From the NCBI GenBank assembly GCA_012517155.1, contig JAAYVN010000062.1:1-33172 (forward strand): a stretch of 33,172 nucleotides of DNA, written 5' to 3'. A program made the translations under genes and the position numbers. The stretch is from Ignavibacteriales bacterium. Its GTDB lineage: Bacteria > Bacteroidota > Ignavibacteria > Ignavibacteriales > Ignavibacteriaceae. How positions within the stretch are numbered: the stretch's first letter is position 1; each line of letters starts with the position of its first letter. The notes below the pieces were generated by a model that saw only the letters and a program-made list of their open reading frames with translations, had not been told where the DNA came from and ran no database searches. Below are positions 9,460 through 22,262 of this stretch, piece by piece.

Positions 9460-9470
9460 TCGCAAAGTAT

Positions 9471-9474
9471 GGAG
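9471..9474 (+). promoter_or_regulatory. Ribosome binding site deciding the start of the PorV-like gene
   Basis: GGAG lies six bases before the ATG at 9481. The ATG at 9469 has no such site and would add four residues in front of the signal peptide. Confidence 0.65.
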
Positions 9475-9480
9475 CTAAAA

Positions 9481-10545
9481 ATGAAATCGAAAAAATATAT
9501 TTATGGAATTTTATTCATAATAACATTAATTGTTCCAAACATGTATGCGCAGTCTGGTGAGGATGAATTTTCTAAGATGAACTTTGCTGAGTCAGTAACA
9601 AACAGGGGAACTTCAGCGGCAGCTTTTTTGGAAATAGGCGTTGGGGCGAGAGCGGAAGCTATGGGGAGTGCATTTACAGCTATCTCAAATGATGCGTCTG
9701 CGCTTTACTGGAATGCAGCAGGGATCTCCGGATTAACTGACGTAAGTATAACCGCGAGTCACACAGAATGGCTGGCGGAAACAAAATTCCAAAACCTGGG
9801 TTTAGTGATACCAATTGGCGATTCAAAAGCATTTGGTTTTTCGCTTACTATGCTAGATTATATGGATAAGCAACCTGTAAGAACTATAAGGTATCCGGAA
9901 GGGACCGGAGAATATTACGATGCCTCTGATCTGGCGATTGCAGTAAGCTATGCAATGAATATTACTGAGGGTTTTTCGTTTGGTATTACAGGAAAGTATA
10001 TCTATCAAACAATATGGCATGAATCCGCAGCAGCTTTTGCGGCTGATCTGGGAATACTTTACAAAACGGATTTGAAGGGATTAACATTAGGTGCAAGTAT
10101 CTCGAATTTTGGAAGTGATATGCGACTGGACGGAAGAGACTTAATAAGACCATATGATGAGGATCAGCAGAATTATTCTAACGACAAATTAAATGTCCTG
10201 TTAAAAACAGATGAGTTCTCTCTTCCGCTTCTATTCAGATTTGGTATTGCATATAATCTGGCGGTTCATTCGGATCACGATTTTAACCTTGCCGCAGATT
10301 TACTGCATCCAAGCAATAATGTTGAGTCTATGAATGTGGGCTTAGAATATGGGTTTAAGAATGTACTCTTTTTAAGAGGGGGTTATCAGTCATTATTTGA
10401 TAACAGAAGTGAGACAGGATTAACGCTTGGAATTGGTGTAAGAAATCCGCTTTCAGATTTTCTTGATATTGAATTCAATTATGCTTATTCAGATTGGGGA
10501 AAACTAAAAAGCGTTCAAAGATTTTCAATTGACTTACGCTTTTAA
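9481..10545 (+). CDS. PorV/PorQ-family outer-membrane protein
   Basis: A 354-residue protein with a signal peptide (MKSKKYIYGILFIITLI to MYAQ). The mature N-terminal part holds the family hallmark, GARAEAMGSAFTAISNDASALYWNAAG, a FadL-like start that opens a 14-strand barrel; amphipathic strands continue to the terminal FSIDLRF. PorV (LptO) of the type IX secretion system binds the C-terminal sorting domains of cargo and shuttles them to the surface attachment machinery; PorQ-type members have related roles. It is encoded directly behind a large T9SS-type cargo protein and in one run with three or four other cargo proteins, which suggests a shuttle dedicated to this locus. That role is inferred. 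Family assignment is strong; orthology to PorV itself is not shown. Confidence 0.85.
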   Translation: MKSKKYIYGILFIITLIVPNMYAQSGEDEFSKMNFAESVTNRGTSAAAFLEIGVGARAEAMGSAFTAISNDASALYWNAAGISGLTDVSITASHTEWLAETKFQNLGLVIPIGDSKAFGFSLTMLDYMDKQPVRTIRYPEGTGEYYDASDLAIAVSYAMNITEGFSFGITGKYIYQTIWHESAAAFAADLGILYKTDLKGLTLGASISNFGSDMRLDGRDLIRPYDEDQQNYSNDKLNVLLKTDEFSLPLLFRFGIAYNLAVHSDHDFNLAADLLHPSNNVESMNVGLEYGFKNVLFLRGGYQSLFDNRSETGLTLGIGVRNPLSDFLDIEFNYAYSDWGKLKSVQRFSIDLRF

Positions 10546-10571
10546 TGAATTGATGAAAAAGGTTTCTAGTG

Positions 10572-12239
10572 ATGGAAAAAAATAATAATATCGAATATTT
10601 TGATTTAATAATAATAGGTGCCGGAATAAATGGTGCGGGTATTGCTCTCGACGCAGCATTGAGAGGAATTAAAGTACTTTTACTAGATAAACGAGATTTC
10701 GGAGGATACACAACAAGTGCTTCAACAAAGTTAATACATGGAGGACTCCGGTATTTGGAATATATGGAATTTCCGCTTGTAAGGGAATCCTTGAGAGAAA
10801 GGGAAAGGCTACTTCACAATGCACCCCACCTAATTAAACCTTTACAGCTAAACGTTCCTTTGTATAAAACTAATAAAAGGGGACCACTAGTTATAAAGCT
10901 TGGTATGATACTTTACGATCTTCTTTCTTATGATAAGAGTTTACCTAACCATAATTTCCACTTCCTTCAAAAAGGGGGTAACGGATTCGAGAAAGGTTCT
11001 ATCCTGAGGAAAGATGATCTTAAGGCAGTTGCAAGTTATTATGACTGTATTGCACAGTTCCCGGAAAGGCTTTGTCTGGAGATTGTTCTGAGTGCAAAAC
11101 AGAATGGGGCAGTTGTAAAAAACTACTGTGAGTTTTTATCGATGACGAAAAGTTCCGACGATTATAACCGAGTAACGTACAAGGATTTAATGTCCGATTT
11201 GTCGATATCAGTGTACGGGAGAGTAGTAGTTAATGCAACCGGACCATATGTGGATAATGTAAATGCTCTTATAAATAAGGAAATAAAAAGGAGAATGGGT
11301 GGAACTAAGGGAAGTCATATAATAATTGAAAAATTTGCAAATGGTCCTAAAGAAGCACTATACATTGAATCACATCAGGATGGACGACCTTTCTTTATTA
11401 TACCCTGGAGAGATTATTACCTTGTGGGGACAACAGATATTTATTTTGAAGATGATTTTGACAGAGTAACCGCATCAGAAGATGAGGTAAAATATCTTTT
11501 AAGAGAGTTGAATTATTATTTTCCCAAACGTGAGTTTGTCCATAATGATATTTTCTACTCATATTCCGGGGTAAGACCCCTCCCTTATGAACCGGGGAAA
11601 AAAGAGCGACAGATAACAAGAAAGCATATTATTGTTGATCACTCTAAAGAAAAAGAAAAAATAGATAATTATATATCCATAGTAGGTGGGAAGCTAACAA
11701 CATACAGGAGTCTTTCAGAAGAAGCCGTTAACCTAATATGTACAAAACTTAAAAAAGACATAAATTGCAGAACAAGAAATTACAAATTAATCGGAGCAGC
11801 AGGTATTCAAAGTATAGAAGAATATAAAAAGGAATACACGGCGAAGAGTGCCAAGAATTACGAGGTTCCGTTGGAAACTGCAGATTATTTAATTGATTTT
11901 TACGGCAGCAATTTTAGAGATGTACTTAACTTAACAATAAGCAGATCAGATCTTAAAGATCCGATATCGTCAGAAAACAAGGATATAAAAGCTCAAATAA
12001 TTTATGCTATAGAAAAGGAAGAGGCTAAAACACTTGAGGATATTCTGATCAGAAGAACCGGTATTGGTACAAATAAAACATTAGGGCTGGATTGTGTTGA
12101 TGATGTGAGTAAAATTGCAGCAGCCAAACTTGGATGGAATGAAACAATAAGAAAACAGAATCTGGAGAAATATATTGAAAATGTACATTTTTTCTATGAA
12201 ATAAAAGGAAGCGAAAAAAAAATGGAAACAGTTAAATGA
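10572..12239 (+). CDS. glpD: FAD-dependent glycerol-3-phosphate dehydrogenase
   Basis: About 555 residues from the ATG at 10572 (a GTG lies directly before it at 10569); AAAGG about nine bases upstream supports it. The enzyme oxidises sn-glycerol 3-phosphate to dihydroxyacetone phosphate and passes electrons to quinones at the inner membrane. Seen: the N-terminal dinucleotide-binding motif IIIGAGINGAGIALDAALRG (residues about 13-32), the family motif STKLIHGGLRYLEY, the FIIPWRDYYLVGTTD strand, YSGVRPL, and GGKLTTYRSLSEEA at the end of the FAD domain, then the alpha-helical GlpD C-terminal domain. The length is normal (500-570). It overlaps the regulator gene by 4 bases (ATGA). The same locus holds glpT and a phosphodiesterase, so its substrate is probably supplied by uptake; no glycerol kinase is present here. 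Confidence 0.96.
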   Translation: MEKNNNIEYFDLIIIGAGINGAGIALDAALRGIKVLLLDKRDFGGYTTSASTKLIHGGLRYLEYMEFPLVRESLRERERLLHNAPHLIKPLQLNVPLYKTNKRGPLVIKLGMILYDLLSYDKSLPNHNFHFLQKGGNGFEKGSILRKDDLKAVASYYDCIAQFPERLCLEIVLSAKQNGAVVKNYCEFLSMTKSSDDYNRVTYKDLMSDLSISVYGRVVVNATGPYVDNVNALINKEIKRRMGGTKGSHIIIEKFANGPKEALYIESHQDGRPFFIIPWRDYYLVGTTDIYFEDDFDRVTASEDEVKYLLRELNYYFPKREFVHNDIFYSYSGVRPLPYEPGKKERQITRKHIIVDHSKEKEKIDNYISIVGGKLTTYRSLSEEAVNLICTKLKKDINCRTRNYKLIGAAGIQSIEEYKKEYTAKSAKNYEVPLETADYLIDFYGSNFRDVLNLTISRSDLKDPISSENKDIKAQIIYAIEKEEAKTLEDILIRRTGIGTNKTLGLDCVDDVSKIAAAKLGWNETIRKQNLEKYIENVHFFYEIKGSEKKMETVK

Positions 12240-13030
12240 GTATATCCAAGCTAAAATTAGCCCCAATATACTACAATATTTTCGAAGAACTATTAGGAGA
12301 AGTAGAATCGGGTAAATTGGGACCAAATGAAAAGTTTCCAAGTGAGAATGATCTTTGCCAAAGATTTAACGTAAGCCGCGGGACAATAAGAGAAGCACTG
12401 AAACTTTTGGAACAGCATGGTGTAATTACTCGTACGCAAGGAAAAGGAACTTTTATTACAGAAAAGAAATTTGAACAGGAAGTTACAAGATTAATGGGAT
12501 TTTCTGAAGTAATGAAAAGATACGGGATTGAAGCAACAGCTAAATTATTATCACTTGAAGTAATTCCGGCTAATGACAGAATAAGAGATAGACTTAATTT
12601 ATTGCAGGGAGAAAATGTAGTTGCGATCAAGAGATTGAGATTAGGAGACGGCATACCACTAATTATTGAAAGATCATACTTTGTTTATTCGATATTCAAA
12701 CCTATTTTAGCTTATGATCTTGAAAGTTCATCTATCTTTGAACTTTTGTATCAGCATACCCCTTATAGATTGGGTTACGCAACGCAATTTATTGAAGCTG
12801 TTATTTCAAGGGACGATGAAAGTGAGCTATTTGAAATATCAACGGGATCACCACTATTGTTGATAAAACGTTTAGTTCACCTAATAGATGGAAGGGCTTT
12901 TGAATTTTCTGAAGATTTGTACCGGAGTGACAAACTGAAATTCACAATCAAAACAGCACCTTATGAAAAAAATGACATGGAAATGGATATAATAAAAAAT
13001 AAAAAACAAACTTTAAACTCAAAGGATTAG
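12236..13030 (+). CDS. GntR-family transcriptional regulator, HutC subfamily (UTRA domain)
   Basis: A 264-residue protein. Residues about 10-75 form the GntR winged helix-turn-helix: FPSENDLCQRFNVSRGTIREALKLLEQHGVITRTQGKGTFI. Residues about 95-245 match a UTRA effector domain, with VIPANDRIRDRLNL, VVAIKRLRLGDGIPLIIERSYF and FEISTGSPLLLIKRLVHLIDGRAFEFSEDLYRSD. UTRA regulators of the HutC subfamily bind small ligands, often sugar phosphates, and repress nearby catabolic genes. It is translationally coupled to glpD (4-base overlap) and is two bases from the next gene. A site with the HutC operator pattern lies just downstream of the operon promoter (3504-3515), so autoregulation of the whole run is likely. 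The effector could be glycerol 3-phosphate or a related compound; this is inference. Confidence 0.92.
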   Translation: MSISKLKLAPIYYNIFEELLGEVESGKLGPNEKFPSENDLCQRFNVSRGTIREALKLLEQHGVITRTQGKGTFITEKKFEQEVTRLMGFSEVMKRYGIEATAKLLSLEVIPANDRIRDRLNLLQGENVVAIKRLRLGDGIPLIIERSYFVYSIFKPILAYDLESSSIFELLYQHTPYRLGYATQFIEAVISRDDESELFEISTGSPLLLIKRLVHLIDGRAFEFSEDLYRSDKLKFTIKTAPYEKNDMEMDIIKNKKQTLNSKD

Positions 13031-13032
13031 TC

Positions 13033-15597
13033 ATGGATAAATCAATCAAAAAAATCTGGTTAATAGTGACCATTATACTGGTATTAACCTCAGCAAACAG
13101 CATAATGGCTCAATGGAATAAAGCACTTCACTTTTCATGGTGGCAACATGACAGGGTATTAATTCCCGATGCGCCGAGTCTTTTTCCATTTGTGCTAAAC
13201 GCAGGAACGGTGGAAATGTGGTTTAAACCTGATTCATTGTTTACCGCAACCAGTCACCCACCTGATTATACATACTTGTTCAGCAAGAACCTTTCCGGCA
13301 ATGTACAGGGAGACCTTGGAATTGGGTGGAAAAGAAATGATGGTGATATACAGTGTTTTATACAAGACGGTTCAGTTACACAAGATGTATATCCACTAAT
13401 TACGGCATGGGAACCGCGATGGTATCACATAGCCTATGTATGGGATACAGCCGACTCTATGAGAGTATTTATTGATGGTGTGCAAAGTGCAGATATAGAG
13501 CCGAACCAAGCAGGTGAAGTCTGTTTGCCTGTTTACGGCGGAACTCAGACTATCGTGCTAGGTTCCGGAGCAGTGGATTTGCTTGATTTAAGATATGAAA
13601 CCTTCAGAGGATCAATAGATGAGGTGAGAATATCAGCAGTTGCCCGATATACAAATAACTTCACAGTGCCAACTACTGCATTTGAAGTGGATCCATACAC
13701 TATTGCCCTGTGGCATTTTGATGAAGGAAACGGTAATACTGTAAGTGACGCAACCGGTAATGGATTCAATGGAATACTTGGTCATCCTGATTCAGTAAAT
13801 TATGCTCATCCTGAGTGGATCAATGTTATAAGGGATCCTAAAATAATAATTAATGAAATGAATGTTGATGTAGCAGAAGGAAATGCAGGAGATGCAAACG
13901 GAGATGGTACTAGGGATGCTAATCAAGATCAATTTATAGAAATTGTAAACATTACGAATACAGTGCAAGATCTTTCAGGTTATCAAGTCGGGGATAATTC
14001 AGGCCTAAACTTTACGTTTCCGCAGGGATATACAATTGCACCGAGTAGTTTTGTAACTATATTTGGAGGGGGAAATGTCTCCAATGTAACCGGATATAAT
14101 CCAGATCAACTGCTTACTAGAGTTTTCACAGCAGGGGGTTCAATTGGAGACGGATTGCTTACTGCCGGTGATTATGTGATTATAAAATCTGCAGACGGAA
14201 GTCATGACGTATATTTTGCGTATGGCGATAAATATGGAGCGGGTGCACCCTCGGGAAACGGAGCATCCGGAATATCATGGGAATTTATGGAAAGGACTCA
14301 AGCGAATACAGGGAATGATAACTCCATAACACGTAATCCTGATGGGAATTATACAACTGGCGGTGATATCTTTGTTGAACATAATACAGTAAGTTCACAA
14401 GCTTTTTCTCCAAATAAAACGGCTGCAGGTTATAGCATACTAGTATTCCCATTGACAGTAACAGTGAACCCGACCGGTACAGGAAATGTTACAATAGATC
14501 CTCAGTTGGAAGTATATCCGGTAGGTACAGCTGTAACAATTACGGCTCAACCGAATGATAAGTATGTATTTACAAGCTGGACCGGAAGCGTTGATGAGCT
14601 ATTTAATCCGCTTGGAATCACGATGAATTCTCCAAAAAATATAACGGTGAATTTTGCACCACAATTCAGAGTAACACCAAAGTTGATTGTTAATGAAGTG
14701 CTTGCAGATCCTAAGAACGATCCAATACTTGGTGATGCTAACGGTGACGGAGTAGTAAGTTCACTGCAAGATGAGTTTGTGGAACTGGTGAACATTAGTG
14801 ATCAACCCTTTGATTTATCGGGCTTTAGAATAGGTGATGATGAGATGATAACTTACACATTTCCGAACGGATACATTCTGCAGCCGAAACAATTCTTAGT
14901 ATTTTTTGGTGGTGGCGATCTTACGAACGTCCCCGGATATAATCCTGATATAATGCAAACCAGAGTATTTAAGGCGGATAGTCAAGGTGTTGGAAACGGA
15001 TTGGCTAATGGAGGGGACTTCTTTTTACTCCTTTCTCCAGATGGTTCGTACGATATGTATTTTGGATATAATTCAAAATTCAATTCAGGACCTCCGGTAA
15101 CAGATGTTGTTGCAGGAGTGGAATTCGAAATAATGCAAGAAACAGCAACTAACGGACAGAATGATAATTCCATGACACGTAATCCCGACGGAAATATCAG
15201 TATCGGAGATCCATTTGTAGAACATAAAAATGTTTCACAGGCATTATTTTCACCGGGTAAGATGTTAGACGGAAGCACATTTCTTTCTGCTGAGGATAAG
15301 AATTTAACAGGAGTTCCAACAGAATATAAGATGTATACAAATTATCCAAATCCTTTTAATCCAAGTACAACAATCAGATTTGATATACCTAATCGATCAA
15401 AAGTTGTGCTAAAGATATTTAATATTCATGGCGAAGAAATTATAACACTTGCTAATGAGGAATTTAATCCAGGAGAGTATGGAATAACATGGAACGGTAA
15501 AAACTCCAGAGGGGAATCAATGCCGAGTGGTATGTATATATACAGAATAGTTTCGGATAACTTTACGCAATCAAGCAAGATGATCTTATTAAAGTAA
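13033..15597 (+). CDS. LamG and double lamin-tail-domain T9SS surface protein
   Basis: An 854-residue secreted protein. Signal peptide 1-27 (ends SIMAQ). Residues about 28-245 form a LamG/concanavalin-like jelly roll (GTVEMWFKPD, WYHIAYVWD, RVFIDGV, FRGSIDEVRI, IALWHFDEG). Residues about 270-462 and 550-745 are two copies of a lamin-tail domain, each with an INEM/VNEV start, a DANGDG calcium-like loop, FIEIVNI/FVELVNI, and a RNPDGN end. Between them, about 473-543, lies an InlB B-repeat-like module (VTVNPTGTGNVTIDP, FTSWTG). Residues about 768-854 are a type A T9SS sorting domain (NYPNPFNPSTTI ... KMILLK). LamG and lamin-tail domains usually bind polysaccharides, DNA or other surface polymers. 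AAGGA seven bases before the ATG sets the start. It is two bases from the regulator gene, which is unusual company for a surface protein and puts it under the same control as glpD. Confidence 0.9.
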   Translation: MDKSIKKIWLIVTIILVLTSANSIMAQWNKALHFSWWQHDRVLIPDAPSLFPFVLNAGTVEMWFKPDSLFTATSHPPDYTYLFSKNLSGNVQGDLGIGWKRNDGDIQCFIQDGSVTQDVYPLITAWEPRWYHIAYVWDTADSMRVFIDGVQSADIEPNQAGEVCLPVYGGTQTIVLGSGAVDLLDLRYETFRGSIDEVRISAVARYTNNFTVPTTAFEVDPYTIALWHFDEGNGNTVSDATGNGFNGILGHPDSVNYAHPEWINVIRDPKIIINEMNVDVAEGNAGDANGDGTRDANQDQFIEIVNITNTVQDLSGYQVGDNSGLNFTFPQGYTIAPSSFVTIFGGGNVSNVTGYNPDQLLTRVFTAGGSIGDGLLTAGDYVIIKSADGSHDVYFAYGDKYGAGAPSGNGASGISWEFMERTQANTGNDNSITRNPDGNYTTGGDIFVEHNTVSSQAFSPNKTAAGYSILVFPLTVTVNPTGTGNVTIDPQLEVYPVGTAVTITAQPNDKYVFTSWTGSVDELFNPLGITMNSPKNITVNFAPQFRVTPKLIVNEVLADPKNDPILGDANGDGVVSSLQDEFVELVNISDQPFDLSGFRIGDDEMITYTFPNGYILQPKQFLVFFGGGDLTNVPGYNPDIMQTRVFKADSQGVGNGLANGGDFFLLLSPDGSYDMYFGYNSKFNSGPPVTDVVAGVEFEIMQETATNGQNDNSMTRNPDGNISIGDPFVEHKNVSQALFSPGKMLDGSTFLSAEDKNLTGVPTEYKMYTNYPNPFNPSTTIRFDIPNRSKVVLKIFNIHGEEIITLANEEFNPGEYGITWNGKNSRGESMPSGMYIYRIVSDNFTQSSKMILLK
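13840..14418 (+). repeat. Lamin-tail domain copy 1
   Basis: Encodes residues about 270-462 of the 854-residue protein. It aligns along its length with copy 2: the INEM start, GDANGDG, QDQFIEIVNI, DLSGYQVGD, VTIFGGGNVSNVTGYNPD, TRVFTA and SITRNPDGN. Confidence 0.8.
14680..15267 (+). repeat. Lamin-tail domain copy 2
   Basis: Encodes residues about 550-745. Matching blocks are VNEV, GDANGDG, QDEFVELVNI, DLSGFRIGD, LVFFGGGDLTNVPGYNPD, TRVFKA and SMTRNPDGN, clearly an internal duplication with copy 1. Confidence 0.8.
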
Positions 15598-15606
15598 GGA
15601 GTTATA

Positions 15607-15642
15607 AAAGCCTCTTCCCTCAAAGGGGAGAGGCTCTTTTAT
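15607..15642 (+). terminator. Strong hairpin terminator inside the operon
   Basis: Ten-base-pair stem GCCTCTTCCC (15610-15619) with GGGGAGAGGC (15625-15634), five-base loop, then TCTTTTATT. It follows the LamG/lamin-tail gene, and no convincing promoter is seen between it and the next gene at 15667. It may lower expression of the downstream genes rather than stop it. Confidence 0.85.
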
Positions 15643-15656
15643 TAATTAATAGTATT

Positions 15657-15662
15657 GAGGAG
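15657..15662 (+). promoter_or_regulatory. Ribosome binding site deciding a TTG start
   Basis: GAGGAG lies four bases before the TTG at 15667. The TTG at 15655 overlaps this site and so is less likely to be the start. Confidence 0.55.
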
Positions 15663-15666
15663 TTTA

Positions 15667-17493
15667 TTGAAGTTTGTATTTATTACTCTAATTATTTCCG
15701 CAAGTATACTTGCTCAGAATCGAATTCTATTCAGATACAATGCGGATTTTCCTGCGGGATCTGATCTGCAAAATGCTGTAACTCTGAATTCAGTTTCTGT
15801 ACAAAACAACATTGAAGATGAAGAGGAAACAGCAAGAGGCATTGGTGGTTGGGGTTTGCTTCCAAGAAAAAGCGCATCTTTCTCTGGGGGAGAAAGTTAT
15901 ATTGTAACGACAGGAAATGTTCAAACATCTTACTTTGGGACTATTCAGATTTCTGGGGACTTATGGATCAAACCAGAAACCCCAAATGCAGCGATCATAT
16001 CCTGGGATGATACAAGCAAGCTAACGGGTTTGAATGTTTATTTAGAGCAAGGGAAAGTCAATCTTCATTTCAGATTTCTGGGAAACAACTATATAACTAA
16101 GGCACCGGCTACCTTGGTTTTATCCGAATGGCAATTTGTAAGCTGGGGTGTAAAACTTGAGAATGGAATTCTTGAGTTAACAATTTATGTCAATCACAAA
16201 CAAATAAAGAAAGAGAATTATTCGCCTGGAACAAGTGGCGGGTTAATAGCATTGAACACAATAGTTTATTTAGGAAAGTGTATAAACAGCAGCATAAACT
16301 CACCCAATTTTCAAGGAATGATTCATGCAGCACAAATTAGAAATTATATACCAGATGATACTTATTTGCTTTCATTTCTTCCATTCGATGGAGGGAGTTA
16401 TTTTGGATTTCCCAATTTCCATGATTATCCAATATCCTTGAATTCCACACCTGTTGATAAGCGAATTAGCTCAAGTCCTACTCAAATAATGCAGAAATCA
16501 ATAGTTCCATATCAGAATGAAGGATTTATTCCACAAGGAATTACTAATACACATGAAGATGAGGACTATACAGGACCCGAGTTTATTTATATCTCAATGT
16601 ATCACAAGACTCAAACCGGAAGCACCGGAGGTAAGAGGAGCATAATAGTTGAGATTGATCCGAACAATGATTACAGAGTAAGAAGATGTTTCAGGATAAT
16701 GGGGAGTTTCGCATTTTCACATGTGGGGGGGATAGCATATAAAAACAAATCTATATATATATCCACTTCATCCAAAATTGAAGTTTACACGCTTCCGGAT
16801 TTTGTAACACCATATAACAAAAAGTATATAGACCTTACAACATCTCCTAATAATCTATATAATGTTGGGAGTAAAGCATCCTTTTGTACATATTTTATGG
16901 ATACACTGTGGGTCGGAGATTACAGGTTAAGCGGAGAGCCGACTCCATATCTTTATGGTTATCGTATTGATAACATCGGAAGGGTTGTAAACTATGAAGC
17001 ACCAACAATTTACAGGCTTCCAACAAATACACAAGGTGTTGCATGGAAAATGGTAAATAACCAGTCATACTTGTTAATTAGTCAAAGTGGTGGTGATGCC
17101 GGGAGTAAAATCCACAGAGTAAAACGCAGCGCATTAAATACGTCATCAGTACCTATTATAGACACAACATTTAAGATTCCGGCAGGGGGCGAGGACTTAA
17201 GCATTGATAAAAATGGAGATTTATTGAATGTATCTGAGTCGGGAGCGTTATATATACAAAAAGGTCCAAGTCCATTAACATCATTTTTCCCATTTATTTT
17301 TACTATTGATGATTCGATTTTATTCAACGGAATATTAACTTCAATAAATGAAATAAAGAGCGATGAATCCTCCTTGCTTCCGAATGAATATAAAATATCA
17401 TCATTCCCCAATCCTTTTAATGGAAATACCGATGTAGTAGTTTATTTACCTAATTCAGGTCTTGTTACCTTAAAGATATATAATTTAAATTGA
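15667..17493 (+). CDS. LamG/propeller-like T9SS surface protein with sorting signal cut by an in-frame TGA
   Basis: From the TTG at 15667 (GAGGAG at 15657-15662) the frame gives 608 residues, starting with signal peptide MKFVFITLIISASILAQ. Residues about 60-235 resemble a LamG-type jelly roll (GTIQISGDLWIKPE, GGLIALNTIVYLGK, FQGMIHAAQIRNY). Residues about 280-560 look like a repeated-blade fold (IPQGITNTHEDEDY, HVGGIAYKNKSIYISTSSK, GEDLSIDKNGDLLNVSESGALYI). The C-terminal sorting domain begins with FPNPFNGNT and VTLKIYNLN, then meets TGA at 17491-17493. The same frame continues for 50 more codons to a TAA at 17644-17646 and completes the domain (EEISVLQNG ... KMVYLK). In the sister proteins the stop position is a glycine, and GGA to TGA is one base change. 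As written, the product should lack a working T9SS signal. Confidence 0.85.
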   Translation: MKFVFITLIISASILAQNRILFRYNADFPAGSDLQNAVTLNSVSVQNNIEDEEETARGIGGWGLLPRKSASFSGGESYIVTTGNVQTSYFGTIQISGDLWIKPETPNAAIISWDDTSKLTGLNVYLEQGKVNLHFRFLGNNYITKAPATLVLSEWQFVSWGVKLENGILELTIYVNHKQIKKENYSPGTSGGLIALNTIVYLGKCINSSINSPNFQGMIHAAQIRNYIPDDTYLLSFLPFDGGSYFGFPNFHDYPISLNSTPVDKRISSSPTQIMQKSIVPYQNEGFIPQGITNTHEDEDYTGPEFIYISMYHKTQTGSTGGKRSIIVEIDPNNDYRVRRCFRIMGSFAFSHVGGIAYKNKSIYISTSSKIEVYTLPDFVTPYNKKYIDLTTSPNNLYNVGSKASFCTYFMDTLWVGDYRLSGEPTPYLYGYRIDNIGRVVNYEAPTIYRLPTNTQGVAWKMVNNQSYLLISQSGGDAGSKIHRVKRSALNTSSVPIIDTTFKIPAGGEDLSIDKNGDLLNVSESGALYIQKGPSPLTSFFPFIFTIDDSILFNGILTSINEIKSDESSLLPNEYKISSFPNPFNGNTDVVVYLPNSGLVTLKIYNLN

Positions 17494-17646
17494 GAAGAGA
17501 TAAGTGTTTTACAGAATGGCACTATGAGTTCCGGAAAACACGTATTTAGCTGGAATGCCTGTGGAAATAACTCGGGAGTATATATCATGACAATGTATGT
17601 AAACAGTCAACCGGTATCATCTCATAAAATGGTTTATTTAAAATAA
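17494..17646 (+). pseudogene. Detached second half of the T9SS sorting domain (after in-frame TGA)
   Basis: Fifty codons in the same frame as the 608-residue protein, from GAA after the TGA to a TAA. The reading EEISVLQNG, HVFSWNACGNNSGVYIMT and SSHKMVYLK matches the end of type A sorting domains seen at 15597, 23640 and 32829. It has no start site of its own. Full-length product, if TGA were read through, would be about 659 residues. Confidence 0.8.
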
Positions 17647-17660
17647 AGGCAATAATTGAA

Positions 17661-18446
17661 ATGAAAAAATTTATCTGTTTAGTGTTAATTCTAACGGGAG
17701 TTATAATAATGGATACAGTTACTAAAGCCCAGGTAATCATAACTGCACACAGAGGTGCGAGTGGACACGCACCGGAAAACACAATGAGCTCCTTGAAAAA
17801 AGCGATTGAAATGGGGGCTGAGTTTTGCGAAATAGATGTGCAAGAAACAAGTGACGGTGTGATCATTCTTGTTCACGATAAAAATTATAAGCGAACCTGT
17901 GGTGTTGATAAGAATGTTTGGGAGACTACATACAACGAAACCAGAGAACTTGACTGTGGCAGATGGTTCGGAGATACTTTTATAGATGAACCCGTTCCCA
18001 GACTGGATGAGATAATTGATGCAGCCAGAGGGAGAATAAAACTGAATATTGAATTAAAGACAAACGGTCATGAAAAATTGCTAGCGGAAAAAGTTGTTGA
18101 ATTGCTGCTTCAAAAGAATTTTCTTACTGAAGTGATAATAACATCATTTGATTTTACGCTAATTGACAAAGTAAAATCACTTAATCCCTATATTAAATCA
18201 GGTTATATTTTCTCTAAAGTTGGAGAAAGAGATGTTTTCGCTGCTGATATCGATCTTTTAAGTGTAAACAAGAGTTTAATCAATAAGGAATTTGTGGATA
18301 AAGCTTTTGCCTCAGGGAAAGAAGTGCATGTATGGACAGTTAATGAAATCAGTGAAATGGAAAAACTGGTTGAGTTAGGTGTTACAAGTATTATAACAAA
18401 CTATCCTGACAGATTAAAGAGCGTTTTGGAGAAAAATAAGAAATGA
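17661..18446 (+). CDS. Secreted glycerophosphodiester phosphodiesterase
   Basis: A 261-residue protein with a signal peptide or N-terminal anchor (residues about 1-23, ends TKAQ). The GDPD family hydrolyses glycerophosphodiesters to glycerol 3-phosphate and an alcohol, here in the periplasm. Seen: TAHRGASGHAPENT (H30, R31, E39, N40), FCEIDVQ (E57, D59), ILVHD (H72) and KLNIELKT, which together form the TIM-barrel active site with Ca/Mg ligands, and the C-terminal VHVWTVN motif. All key residues are present. The size is close to UgpQ rather than the longer GlpQ, but export argues for a GlpQ-type role. It overlaps the next gene by 4 bases (ATGA). With glpT and glpD in the same run, its product glycerol 3-phosphate can be taken up and oxidised directly. 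Confidence 0.94.
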   Translation: MKKFICLVLILTGVIIMDTVTKAQVIITAHRGASGHAPENTMSSLKKAIEMGAEFCEIDVQETSDGVIILVHDKNYKRTCGVDKNVWETTYNETRELDCGRWFGDTFIDEPVPRLDEIIDAARGRIKLNIELKTNGHEKLLAEKVVELLLQKNFLTEVIITSFDFTLIDKVKSLNPYIKSGYIFSKVGERDVFAADIDLLSVNKSLINKEFVDKAFASGKEVHVWTVNEISEMEKLVELGVTSIITNYPDRLKSVLEKNKK

Positions 18447-19120
18447 CCACTATGCATGGGAAAATGTTCCTTTTAATTGTTTTAATAGGTTTATTTACTA
18501 ATTATAGTGAAATATATTCTCAAGAAGAACAGAAGTTCAGTACATATTTCTATGATAAATGTTCAGCGTTTGATATATTACAAGTGAAAGAGGGAAGGAT
18601 CATTTTCATCGGAGATAGCATAACCGACAGATGTGAATGGAGCGAGTTATTTCAAAGGACAGATATTATTCGGAGGGGAATAAGCGGGGATATATCAGAA
18701 GGAGTTTTAAAGCGTTTGCCGGAAATTATCAGAAGAAAACCGTCAAAAATATTTTTAATGATCGGCGTTAACGACCTGCGACGGAATTTAGATATTGATC
18801 ATGAAGTAGTAATAAACTATGCTGAAATAATTCAACAAATTAAAAAAGAATTGCCAAAGACAAAGATTTATGTTCAATCCGTATTACCTGTGAATAACAT
18901 TGTTAAAGATACAAAAACCACTAATTTAAAAGTTAAGGAATTAAACTTTAAACTTAAAAACCTTTCATTAAAAGAAGGAGTTGAGTTTATAGATCTTTTC
19001 AGTCAATTTATTGATGAGAATGGTAATCTGAAAAATGAATTGACCTCTGACGGATTACATATTAATGGTACGGGCTATGAGATATGGAGTAATTTAATTG
19101 CAGAGGACATTAAGGAATGA
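18443..19120 (+). CDS. Secreted SGNH/GDSL hydrolase
   Basis: A 225-residue protein with a signal peptide (residues about 1-27, ends IYSQ). SGNH hydrolases are esterases or lipases. Seen: block I IFIGDSITD with nucleophile S59, block II GISGD (G82), block III IGVND (N110) and block V DGLHINGTGY with D203 and H206, so the catalytic set is complete. The motif context (WSELF, RLPEII, IGVNDLRR) resembles platelet-activating-factor acetylhydrolase-like and lysophospholipase-like members. It is coupled to the phosphodiesterase gene and to the lipoprotein gene by 4-base overlaps. In this setting it may remove acyl chains from phospholipids or acyl groups from a glycerol-phosphate polymer before the phosphodiesterase acts. 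The substrate is inferred only from context. The first ATG is used because of the ATGA overlap; ATGs at 18452 and 18464 are alternatives. Confidence 0.9.
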   Translation: MTTMHGKMFLLIVLIGLFTNYSEIYSQEEQKFSTYFYDKCSAFDILQVKEGRIIFIGDSITDRCEWSELFQRTDIIRRGISGDISEGVLKRLPEIIRRKPSKIFLMIGVNDLRRNLDIDHEVVINYAEIIQQIKKELPKTKIYVQSVLPVNNIVKDTKTTNLKVKELNFKLKNLSLKEGVEFIDLFSQFIDENGNLKNELTSDGLHINGTGYEIWSNLIAEDIKE

Positions 19121-20004
19121 TGAAGGTATTACTTTTTATTTCTTTGATCTTTTTTTTAATTGGATGTTCGAGTGCACCAGAGAAAGAACTTCAATACAAA
19201 GAAAACGATTATTTTCTTAGAATTTGTGAAGTGAAGGGGAGACAAGGGGTATCTACCGATGGTGATAATATTTATATAAGCGGGACGAAAGAGTTGTATA
19301 AATATGATATGAAGGGTAAACTCCTAGTTGAGAACTTGTCTCCCTTTAAGAACATTAACTTAGAAGTAAATCATCTTGGGGATATTGATTTGCATAAAGA
19401 AGAGATATACACATGTATAGAAAAATTTACTGAAGGGCGAGGGGATAATTTTGTAATCGGTATTTACAACAAAAATGATCTGAGTCTAGTGAGAACTATT
19501 ATACCCGGGAAAAACAGCCCACAAAAAGAAATAAGTGGGATAGCTGTTGATCCGGAGAGAAAATTGATCTGGATGACAGATTGGACAGATGGTAAAAGTA
19601 TTTATTATTATGATCTTGCAACAGGAGATTACATAGGAAGGATTATATTAAAAAAAGAACTGTTTTATTTGCAAGGTATTGTAGTTCACAAAAACTATCT
19701 CCTTCTAACTGCTGATGATGGTGATGCAGAAAATGAAGTAAGTGATAATCTTTATGCAATTAAAATTAATATGTTTGCTGATGTTATTTCAACACCCATT
19801 CATTTAAAAGAATTTGAAGATGTAAAAAGGGAAGGGGAGATCGAAGGAATAACGATTAATCGAAAGAACGGTGAACTCATCGTACTTTTTAACCGGGGTG
19901 CAAAAATCATTAAAGGAATTCCGAAAGGATTCTATCCCGGTTACGATAAAGAAATTCACGAAATTTATTTTTATAAAAATATAGGACAACTACCAGAGGA
20001 TTAA
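19117..20004 (+). CDS. Lipoprotein with propeller-like repeats, function unknown
   Basis: A 295-residue protein with a lipoprotein signal: hydrophobic segment, then LIGC with the lipidated cysteine at C17. The mature part has repeated strand patterns (GVSTDGDNIYISGTKELYKYDMKGK, GIAVDPERKLIWMTDWTDGKSIYYYDL, LQGIVVHKNYLLLTADD, EGITINRKNGELIVLFNRG) typical of a beta-propeller such as NHL or SMP-30-like folds. No catalytic motif was recognised. It is coupled by ATGA to the SGNH gene and lies three bases before the HAD gene. The blade pattern is also seen in the 608-residue T9SS protein earlier in the operon. It could be an outer-membrane-attached binding protein or an esterase of the propeller type. 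The function is unknown. Confidence 0.75.
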   Translation: MMKVLLFISLIFFLIGCSSAPEKELQYKENDYFLRICEVKGRQGVSTDGDNIYISGTKELYKYDMKGKLLVENLSPFKNINLEVNHLGDIDLHKEEIYTCIEKFTEGRGDNFVIGIYNKNDLSLVRTIIPGKNSPQKEISGIAVDPERKLIWMTDWTDGKSIYYYDLATGDYIGRIILKKELFYLQGIVVHKNYLLLTADDGDAENEVSDNLYAIKINMFADVISTPIHLKEFEDVKREGEIEGITINRKNGELIVLFNRGAKIIKGIPKGFYPGYDKEIHEIYFYKNIGQLPED

Positions 20005-20006
20005 GA

Positions 20007-20903
20007 ATGAACCAAATTATGAAAATCATTTTCTATGTAATTGTATTTGTTTCGATTTCTTTCGCGCAAAATAAAACAATATTTAAACCAATATCCGGTT
20101 TTCACGAAGATGCAAACAAATTGATAGAAGAGTTCTTGATATCCACAGAAAACGAAACGGGACGAAAAATTGCAGTATTTGACGGAGACGGTACTGTGCT
20201 AGGACAAACTCCTCATTATCTTGCTGATGAGTGCATGTATGCATATATAAAGAGTAAACCGGGACACAGGACTGGACTGTTAAATGAAATGATAAATCAA
20301 TCTAATGTATCCATTCCATACGTACAAAATCGTATTCGTTTACTGGCCGGACTATCTCTAAACGAAATGCGAGAAATGGGAAAACAATGCTTTAAGGAGA
20401 GATATTCCGATAAGATATTTGAACCTATGAGGCAATTAATTAATGTTTTGAAGCAAAATGGATTTGAGGTATGGATCGTAACCGGTTCTCCGGAGGCTAT
20501 GTATCAAGGATTTCTTTCCGAAGAACTTGAGATTCCAGTAACCAATATAATCGGTGTAAAATCCGTAATCAGACATGGAATCATCACTGAAGAAATTGTA
20601 CATCCAGTACCACAGGACAGAGGTAAAATGGAAGCGATAGAGACATTCATTCAAGACAAACCATTGATAGTTGGCGGAAACAGCCGGGGTGATAAAGAAA
20701 TGATAGAGTTTAGTAAGGGATTGCGGATAATAGTGAATCCGGATACATTTGTTGCCCCAGATCAAACTGAAAGTATTTCTGATTATGCAAAAAAGGAAGG
20801 GTGGATTATTCTAAGAATTAACGATACTCCGGACGATTCTATACCATGGATTTCTACGGAAGATTATAAAATAAAAAGAAACAAAACAAATATTGTGAAG
20901 TAG
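20007..20903 (+). CDS. Secreted HAD-superfamily phosphatase
   Basis: A 298-residue protein with a signal peptide (residues about 1-21, ends SFAQ). HAD motif I is VFDGDGT with nucleophile D59 and general acid D61; motif II is VWIVTGSPEA; a lysine for motif III lies in DRGKMEAIE; motif IV is GGNSRGDKEM with the Mg-binding aspartate. The cap insertion between motifs I and II is helical (residues about 70-140). The arrangement is like phosphoserine-phosphatase-type and phosphorylcholine-phosphatase-type HAD enzymes. Being exported and encoded beside a glycerophosphodiesterase, it may remove phosphate from a head group such as phosphocholine or phosphoethanolamine, or from glycerol 3-phosphate. 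The choice among these is open. It is two bases from the lipoprotein gene and six from glpT. Confidence 0.86.
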   Translation: MNQIMKIIFYVIVFVSISFAQNKTIFKPISGFHEDANKLIEEFLISTENETGRKIAVFDGDGTVLGQTPHYLADECMYAYIKSKPGHRTGLLNEMINQSNVSIPYVQNRIRLLAGLSLNEMREMGKQCFKERYSDKIFEPMRQLINVLKQNGFEVWIVTGSPEAMYQGFLSEELEIPVTNIIGVKSVIRHGIITEEIVHPVPQDRGKMEAIETFIQDKPLIVGGNSRGDKEMIEFSKGLRIIVNPDTFVAPDQTESISDYAKKEGWIILRINDTPDDSIPWISTEDYKIKRNKTNIVK

Positions 20904-20909
20904 GTAATT

Positions 20910-22262
20910 ATGCTGAAAAAAGGATTTCAAATATTTTCTCCCGATCCGATAAAAACAAAACTGCCGGATGATAAGATAGAGAAAAATTACAAATTATTAA
21001 GGTGGAGAGTTCTGGAATCCACTTTCTTAGGATATGCCATTTTCTATCTTGTTAGAAATAATCTTTCTACAGTTGCCAAGGATATGCAAAATGCCCTCTA
21101 TTATGATAAGGACATGATAGGCAATATCCTTGCAATAACTGCTATTTCGTATGGACTAGGAAAATTTGTATTAGGTGCATGGTCAGACAGAAGCAATCCA
21201 CGTAAATTTATGGCAGCAGGATTGTTTTTTTCTGCAATCCTGAATTTTATATTTGGAGGAGTTGCCAGTTATGGTGTACATCTTTTCCTTTGGGGTTTAA
21301 ATGGATTTATTCAGGGAATGGGGTGGCCTCCATGCGGAAGGACAATGGGACATTGGTACAGTATCCGAGAGAGGGGATCAGTATTTGCAGTTTGGAACAT
21401 TGCACATAACATTGGAGGAGGAATAGCGGGAATGCTTGCCGCCTATGCGGCCATGCATTTCGGAGGGTGGCAGGCAGCATTTTATTTTCCGGGGGCAATT
21501 GCTTTAATAGGATCAGTCTATATTTGGTTCCGTTTAAAAGATACTCCACAATCATGCGGTTTGCCTCCGATTGAAGAATATAAAAAGGAAGATTATATTG
21601 ATGTAGAGATTCATGCTGAACCGGAGAGGGAACTCACATACAGGGAATTGTTTATTGACAACATACTAAGGAATAAATATTTGTGGGTTTTTGCTCTGGC
21701 TAATTTTTTTGTGTATATTGTAAGATATAGTATGCTGGACTGGGGACCGATGTACCTTAGAGAGATAAAGGACGCAACATTGGTTGGCGGTGGAATGTCC
21801 ATTCTGATAATTGAATTTGCCGGAATTCCTTCAACTCTTCTGATGGGATGGTTATCCGATAAAGCGGGAGGGAGAAGAGGAATGGTAAGTCTTCTTTGCA
21901 TGATCCCAATCCTTTTTGCATTTTTCGGGATATATATTACTCCCGCAGGTTATCTTTGGGTAGATATGGTTTTACTTGGAATTGTCGGATTTTTTGTTTA
22001 TCCACCTGTAATGCTGTTAGGAGTTTCGGGTTTAGATCTTACAAGCAAAAAAGCGGTTGGAACCGCAGCCGGCTTTATAGGGTTATTTGGTTATCTGGGG
22101 AGGACAGTTCAAGCAAAAGGATTTGGTTGGATGGCAGAGCATTTTGGGAAATTATATGATAAAAATTTCGCTTGGGAGATGATAATATTGTGTATTTTAG
22201 CTTGTACTGTTTTATCAATAATTATACTGGCTTTTACTTGGAAAATAAAACCAAAAGCATAA
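20910..22262 (+). CDS. glpT: Glycerol-3-phosphate/phosphate antiporter, OPA family (MFS)
   Basis: A 450-residue inner-membrane transporter with 12 predicted helices. Strong similarity to E. coli GlpT can be read by eye: FYLVRNNL, LGAWSDRSNPRKF, NGFIQGMGWPPCGRTMGHW, WNIAHNIGGG, the central loop DTPQSCGLPPIEEYK, and VRYSMLDWGP. The substrate-binding arginines (R49 and R272, matching GlpT R45 and R269) and the histidine H166 (GlpT H165) are present, as is K85 (GlpT K80). The family exchanges external glycerol 3-phosphate for internal phosphate. It directly follows the periplasmic enzymes that can release glycerol 3-phosphate and shares the operon with glpD. UhpT-like sugar-phosphate specificity is the main alternative, but the central loop is GlpT-like. 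Confidence 0.95.
   Translation: MLKKGFQIFSPDPIKTKLPDDKIEKNYKLLRWRVLESTFLGYAIFYLVRNNLSTVAKDMQNALYYDKDMIGNILAITAISYGLGKFVLGAWSDRSNPRKFMAAGLFFSAILNFIFGGVASYGVHLFLWGLNGFIQGMGWPPCGRTMGHWYSIRERGSVFAVWNIAHNIGGGIAGMLAAYAAMHFGGWQAAFYFPGAIALIGSVYIWFRLKDTPQSCGLPPIEEYKKEDYIDVEIHAEPERELTYRELFIDNILRNKYLWVFALANFFVYIVRYSMLDWGPMYLREIKDATLVGGGMSILIIEFAGIPSTLLMGWLSDKAGGRRGMVSLLCMIPILFAFFGIYITPAGYLWVDMVLLGIVGFFVYPPVMLLGVSGLDLTSKKAVGTAAGFIGLFGYLGRTVQAKGFGWMAEHFGKLYDKNFAWEMIILCILACTVLSIIILAFTWKIKPKA

What the first reader, a model, noticed from the sequence alone, without database searches (positions are those of the whole stretch)
17488..17646. In-frame TGA cuts the T9SS sorting signal of a surface protein at a conserved glycine
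The protein ends at LKIYNLN, then TGA, and the same frame continues for exactly 50 codons that complete the sorting domain (EEISVLQNG ... MVYLK). The sister domain at 15597 reads IFNIHG-EEIITL, so the stop stands where glycine is expected, and GGA to TGA is one change. The rest of the gene is undamaged. Either a recent nonsense mutation turns a surface protein into a periplasm-trapped one, the genome has a sequence error, or the stop is read through to make two forms.
Basis: seen in the sequence. Interest (0 to 1): 0.65.

Follow-up and report, generated by a model that had tools for sequence, protein, structure and literature searches.

The report
Nonsense-interrupted T9SS surface-protein gene
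One of at least 150 genes for exported surface proteins in this Ignavibacteria-type bacterium carries a single stop codon in the middle of its export tag, most likely a recent ordinary nonsense mutation (or a sequence error) and not a special decoding trick.

Summary
The ORF from TTG 15655 (or 15670) stops at TGA 17491-17493, and the same frame stays open for exactly 50 codons to TAA 17644, completing a type A T9SS sorting domain. The stop sits on the conserved glycine of the domain's beta3-beta4 loop: 62 of 63 other sorting domains sampled from this genome, and both full-length orthologs found, have glycine there. Both orthologs (about 40% identity, same neighbouring genes) are uninterrupted. 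The 50-codon tail fits the sorting-domain profile as well as the part before the stop, so it has not decayed. TGA is an ordinary stop here: RF2 is present, about a fifth of sampled genes end in TGA, no tRNA-Sec or UCA-anticodon tRNA was found, and this is the only interrupted domain among 150 listed. A single-contig relative likewise has one broken domain among 150. Best reading: a recent one-base nonsense mutation removing beta4-beta7 of the export signal, so the product should not reach the surface. A consensus error or strain variant in the draft assembly cannot be excluded without reads. Programmed readthrough or recoding has no support. Ordinary finding, low interest.

The parts
15655..17493 (+). 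ORF of a secreted LamG-like protein with an N-terminal hydrophobic signal, ending inside the sorting domain; likely start TTG 15670 (GAGGAG upstream)
   Evidence: Laminin_G_3 at 5.8e-5, below its cut-off; full-length alignment with two orthologs
17404..17634 (+). Type A T9SS sorting domain (TIGR04183) spanning the stop
   Evidence: 35.9 bits over a cut-off of 23, one TGA inside; 39.4 bits with the stop read as a residue
17491..17493 (+). In-frame TGA at the conserved glycine of the beta3-beta4 loop
   Evidence: Gly in 62 of 63 other sampled domains of this genome and in both orthologs; loop position in the model
17494..17646 (+). 50-codon tail encoding beta4-beta7 of the sorting domain, then TAA

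Best explanation
A single-base nonsense mutation, recent on an evolutionary scale, has changed the conserved glycine codon of the type A T9SS sorting domain to TGA, in a gene of a conserved glycerophosphodiester / glycerol-3-phosphate locus. Translation ends at TGA and the protein loses strands beta4-beta7, including the C-terminal lysine motif. It would still be exported by Sec but not be recognised by the T9SS, so the cell lacks this protein on its surface (retained in the periplasm or degraded). Shown: position of the stop, glycine conservation, intact orthologs, undecayed tail, standard use of TGA. Inferred: that the base is real and fixed in the strain, that secretion is lost, and the fate of the product.
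For: Both orthologs found are uninterrupted with glycine at the site and L064 lies in the same gene order. Glycine in 62 of 63 other sampled domains, 27 of them GGA, one change from TGA. Only interrupted domain among 150; a relative also has one broken domain among 150. The tail scores as well as the pre-stop half, 27.2 vs 27.3 bits. RF2 present; no Sec or UCA tRNA; TGA ends 67 of 351 sampled ORFs. SprA translocon present, so the T9SS is expected to work. Published: removing two C-terminal residues of RgpB traps it in the periplasm (PMC11285876).
Against: No reads or close strains, so the base itself is unverified. The body is intact and the tail undecayed, which a sequence error would explain equally well.
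Confidence: 0.7

Rival explanations
1. The TGA is an error in the consensus, or a minority-strain variant picked up by the draft metagenome-type assembly; the real gene is intact.
For: Draft assembly of 160 contigs; every other part of the gene, including the tail, is intact; one substitution is enough.
Against: Substitution errors are uncommon in a consensus; the site is mid-contig and not in a homopolymer. No other interrupted domain among 150, so the assembly is not generally error-rich.
Confidence: 0.22
2. The stop is maintained and read through at low frequency, making a periplasmic short form and a rare surface form.
For: TGA is the leakiest stop in E. coli, and a following G lowers termination efficiency (PMC11126739); here TGA is followed by G. 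A 60-nt stretch from the stop folds somewhat better than shuffles (z -1.9).
Against: Neither ortholog has the stop; longer stretches fold no better than shuffles (z -0.5 and 0.25). Readthrough inserts mostly Trp, at a glycine where Arg blocks RgpB secretion although Pro was tolerated.
Confidence: 0.05
3. The organism recodes TGA (as Gly, Trp or Sec) genome-wide or at special sites.
For: TGA stands where glycine is expected, as in the SR1/Gracilibacteria code (own knowledge).
Against: TGA terminates 67 of 351 sampled long ORFs and 4 of 61 sorting-domain genes; prfB present; no UCA-anticodon tRNA; one in-frame TGA among 150 domains.
Confidence: 0.01

Closest known systems
[quoted passage not shown] 2021, PMC7918605)
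   Same: An otherwise intact, recently interrupted gene with one in-frame stop.
   Different: Here the stop hits a secretion signal near the C terminus, so the folded body may still be made; no selection test was possible with orthologs at about 40% identity.
RgpB CTD truncation and G699 mutants of P. gingivalis (PMC11285876)
   Same: Same glycine (IFDMNGRRV in RgpB, IYNLN-stop-EEI here) and loss of the C-terminal motif.
   Different: Laboratory mutants in another organism; the effect was not measured here.

Membership tests
T9SS type A sorting domain (TIGR04183 / PF18962) | Profile match over the curated cut-off, read across the stop | tested here: met
   TIGR04183 39.4 bits vs 23; PF18962 26.8 vs 27, just under
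T9SS type A sorting domain (TIGR04183 / PF18962) | Complete domain in the protein as terminated at TGA | tested here: not met
   No NCBIfam hit for the 612-aa ORF
T9SS type A sorting domain (TIGR04183 / PF18962) | Directs secretion through the T9SS | not testable with these tools
   Only the SprA translocon gene was checked
Recent nonsense pseudogene | Orthologs lack the stop | tested here: met
   Two full-length orthologs, Gly at the site
Recent nonsense pseudogene | Stop present in the reads | not testable with these tools
   No reads available
Programmed readthrough | Stop conserved among relatives with a conserved tail | tested here: not met
   Stop absent from both orthologs
Selenoprotein / TGA recoding | tRNA-Sec or UCA-anticodon tRNA | tested here: not met
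   No tRNA-Sec over cut-off; all 39 tRNA matches typed, none UCA

The most novel reading that the evidence does not exclude
The TGA is a maintained leaky switch that splits one surface protein into a periplasmic form and a rare surface-exported form.
Probability: 0.03. Interest if true: 0.65.

Novelty: new member of a known kind. Interest (0 to 1): 0.1.

Why it matters
It matters little beyond annotation: gene callers will end this protein 51 residues early and miss that it belongs to the T9SS cargo set. It is a natural counterpart of laboratory CTD truncations, and would become interesting only if the stop proved to be real, maintained and read through.

Tried and rejected
Close strains: the genus holds only this genome, and the family (80 genomes) has no ortholog of the body. 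Scans of genome contigs and viral contigs with the body alone found nothing; a profile scan recovered two loci, which appear to be the same two orthologs. De novo scan of 710 kb for other in-frame stops followed by coding-like frames: the high-scoring hits were adjacent genes with their own start, apart from one in C126, which I read as the shadow of a gene on the other strand, and a short TAG case in C38 that I did not pursue. The first sorting-domain profile had some badly oriented seeds and was rebuilt clean. Recoding and selenocysteine rejected. The structure model outside the sorting domain is too poor to name the fold of the body. dN/dS was not attempted: orthologs at about 40% identity are too distant.

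Full report
OBSERVATION. The ORF beginning at TTG 15655 (or TTG 15670, which has GAGGAG just upstream) ends LKIYNLN then TGA at 17491-17493. The same frame runs on for exactly 50 codons, EEISVLQNGTMSSGKHVFSWNACGNNSGVYIMTMYVNSQPVSSHKMVYLK, to TAA 17644-17646. With the stop read as a residue the protein is a TIGR04183 hit at 39.4 bits (cut-off 23), and without the tail it has no NCBIfam hit. The continuation is therefore not chance.

GENOME CENSUS. The window is contig 134 of a 3.29 Mb, 160-contig genome, 99.65% complete. A TIGR04183 search listed 150 sorting domains in the genome; this is the only one with a stop inside (150 of 190 candidates were scored). In 64 distinct domains gathered from about 710 kb plus the window and fetched loci, the column holding the stop is glycine in 62 (27 GGA, 14 GGT, 11 GGG, 10 GGC). 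The other exception is a Met in a divergent, partial match. A single-contig relative of the same family also has one damaged domain among 150 listed; reading it shows a frame-shifted body and a corrupted end. One broken sorting-domain gene per genome is thus unremarkable.

ORTHOLOGS. No other genome in the family carries the body of this protein (80 genomes searched), and the genus has no other genome. In the order, two genomes carry full-length orthologs at about 40% identity: 662 aa (L063) and 665 aa (L064). They appear to be the MAGs titled Melioribacteraceae bacterium PL25a_bin.33 and Ignavibacteriae bacterium IGN16, judging by matching contig lengths. Both are uninterrupted and have glycine at the site (codons GGT and GGA), and conservation runs the whole length. 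L064 lies in the same gene order: PorV-like protein, glycerol-3-phosphate dehydrogenase, GntR/UTRA regulator, LamG/LTD/CTD protein, this gene, then GDPD and further genes of matching size. This is strong evidence of orthology and suggests that the ancestral state was a sense glycine codon.

THE TAIL. Scored against a profile of the genome's own sorting domains, the part before the stop and the part after it score 27.3 and 27.2 bits, ranks 8 of 79 and 10 of 78 from the bottom. The domain is divergent, but equally so on both sides, so the tail shows no extra decay. Its codon usage leans towards coding: it beats 94% of short open stretches and lies above 15% of true coding windows; the other five frames of the stretch hold 3-5 stops each.

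DECODING MACHINERY. A prfB (RF2) gene is present. No tRNA-Sec reaches the cut-off, and the listed loci typed as ordinary tRNAs. All 39 tRNA matches in the genome were typed, and none has a UCA anticodon. tRNA-Trp has an ordinary 5-bp anticodon stem. TGA ends 67 of 351 sampled long ORFs. RNA folding after the stop is unremarkable at 100 nt and marginal at 60 nt (z -1.9). Genome-wide recoding is excluded and programmed readthrough has no support.

MECHANISM. In the model of the read-through form the sorting domain shows seven strands, with the site in the beta3-beta4 loop (only this domain is modelled with fair confidence). The glycine corresponds to RgpB G699 in motif L-beta3-beta4: IFDMNGRRV in RgpB, IYNLN-stop-EEI here. 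Published work reports that G699R, or replacing the loop, blocks RgpB secretion; that G699P had little effect; and that removing the last two residues of RgpB leaves it in the periplasm (PMC11285876). A review places the essential signal in motifs D and E at the very C terminus (PMC10202324). The truncated protein lacks beta4-beta7 and so should not be exported across the outer membrane. In E. coli, readthrough of TGA inserts mainly tryptophan (PMC11126739), which would put a bulky residue at this glycine, so even basal readthrough might not restore export. The truncation also leaves 167 untranslated bases before the next gene, which could weaken expression of the downstream GDPD gene; that is inference and untested.

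VERDICT. The best explanation is a recent single-base nonsense mutation (0.7), with sequence error or strain variant second (0.22). The evidence here separates these two poorly, because reads and close strains were not available. In-frame stops in otherwise intact bacterial genes are a described phenomenon (PMC7918605). Interest is low.

Noticed in passing
window 9469-22262; L108 1286-15646: Conserved locus across the order: PorV-like protein, glycerol-3-phosphate dehydrogenase, GntR/UTRA regulator, two T9SS surface proteins, GDPD, GDSL lipase, a propeller-like protein, HAD and MFS transporter. It looks like a glycerophosphodiester / glycerol-3-phosphate utilisation operon with its own surface proteins.
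   Followed up: partly
between window 17646 and 17661; L108 9482-11032: The orthologous loci carry an extra 516-aa gene (PPIC-type rotamase in L108) between this gene and GDPD; it is absent from the window.
   Followed up: partly
G018:C1:3360722-3360940 (L113): A sorting-domain gene in a single-contig relative with a frame-shifted body and corrupted end: a background case of a broken T9SS cargo gene.
   Followed up: yes
G139:C20:101290-101454 (L065): Weak 57-residue match to the LamG region with three in-frame TGAs, possibly a decayed remnant or chance.
   Followed up: no
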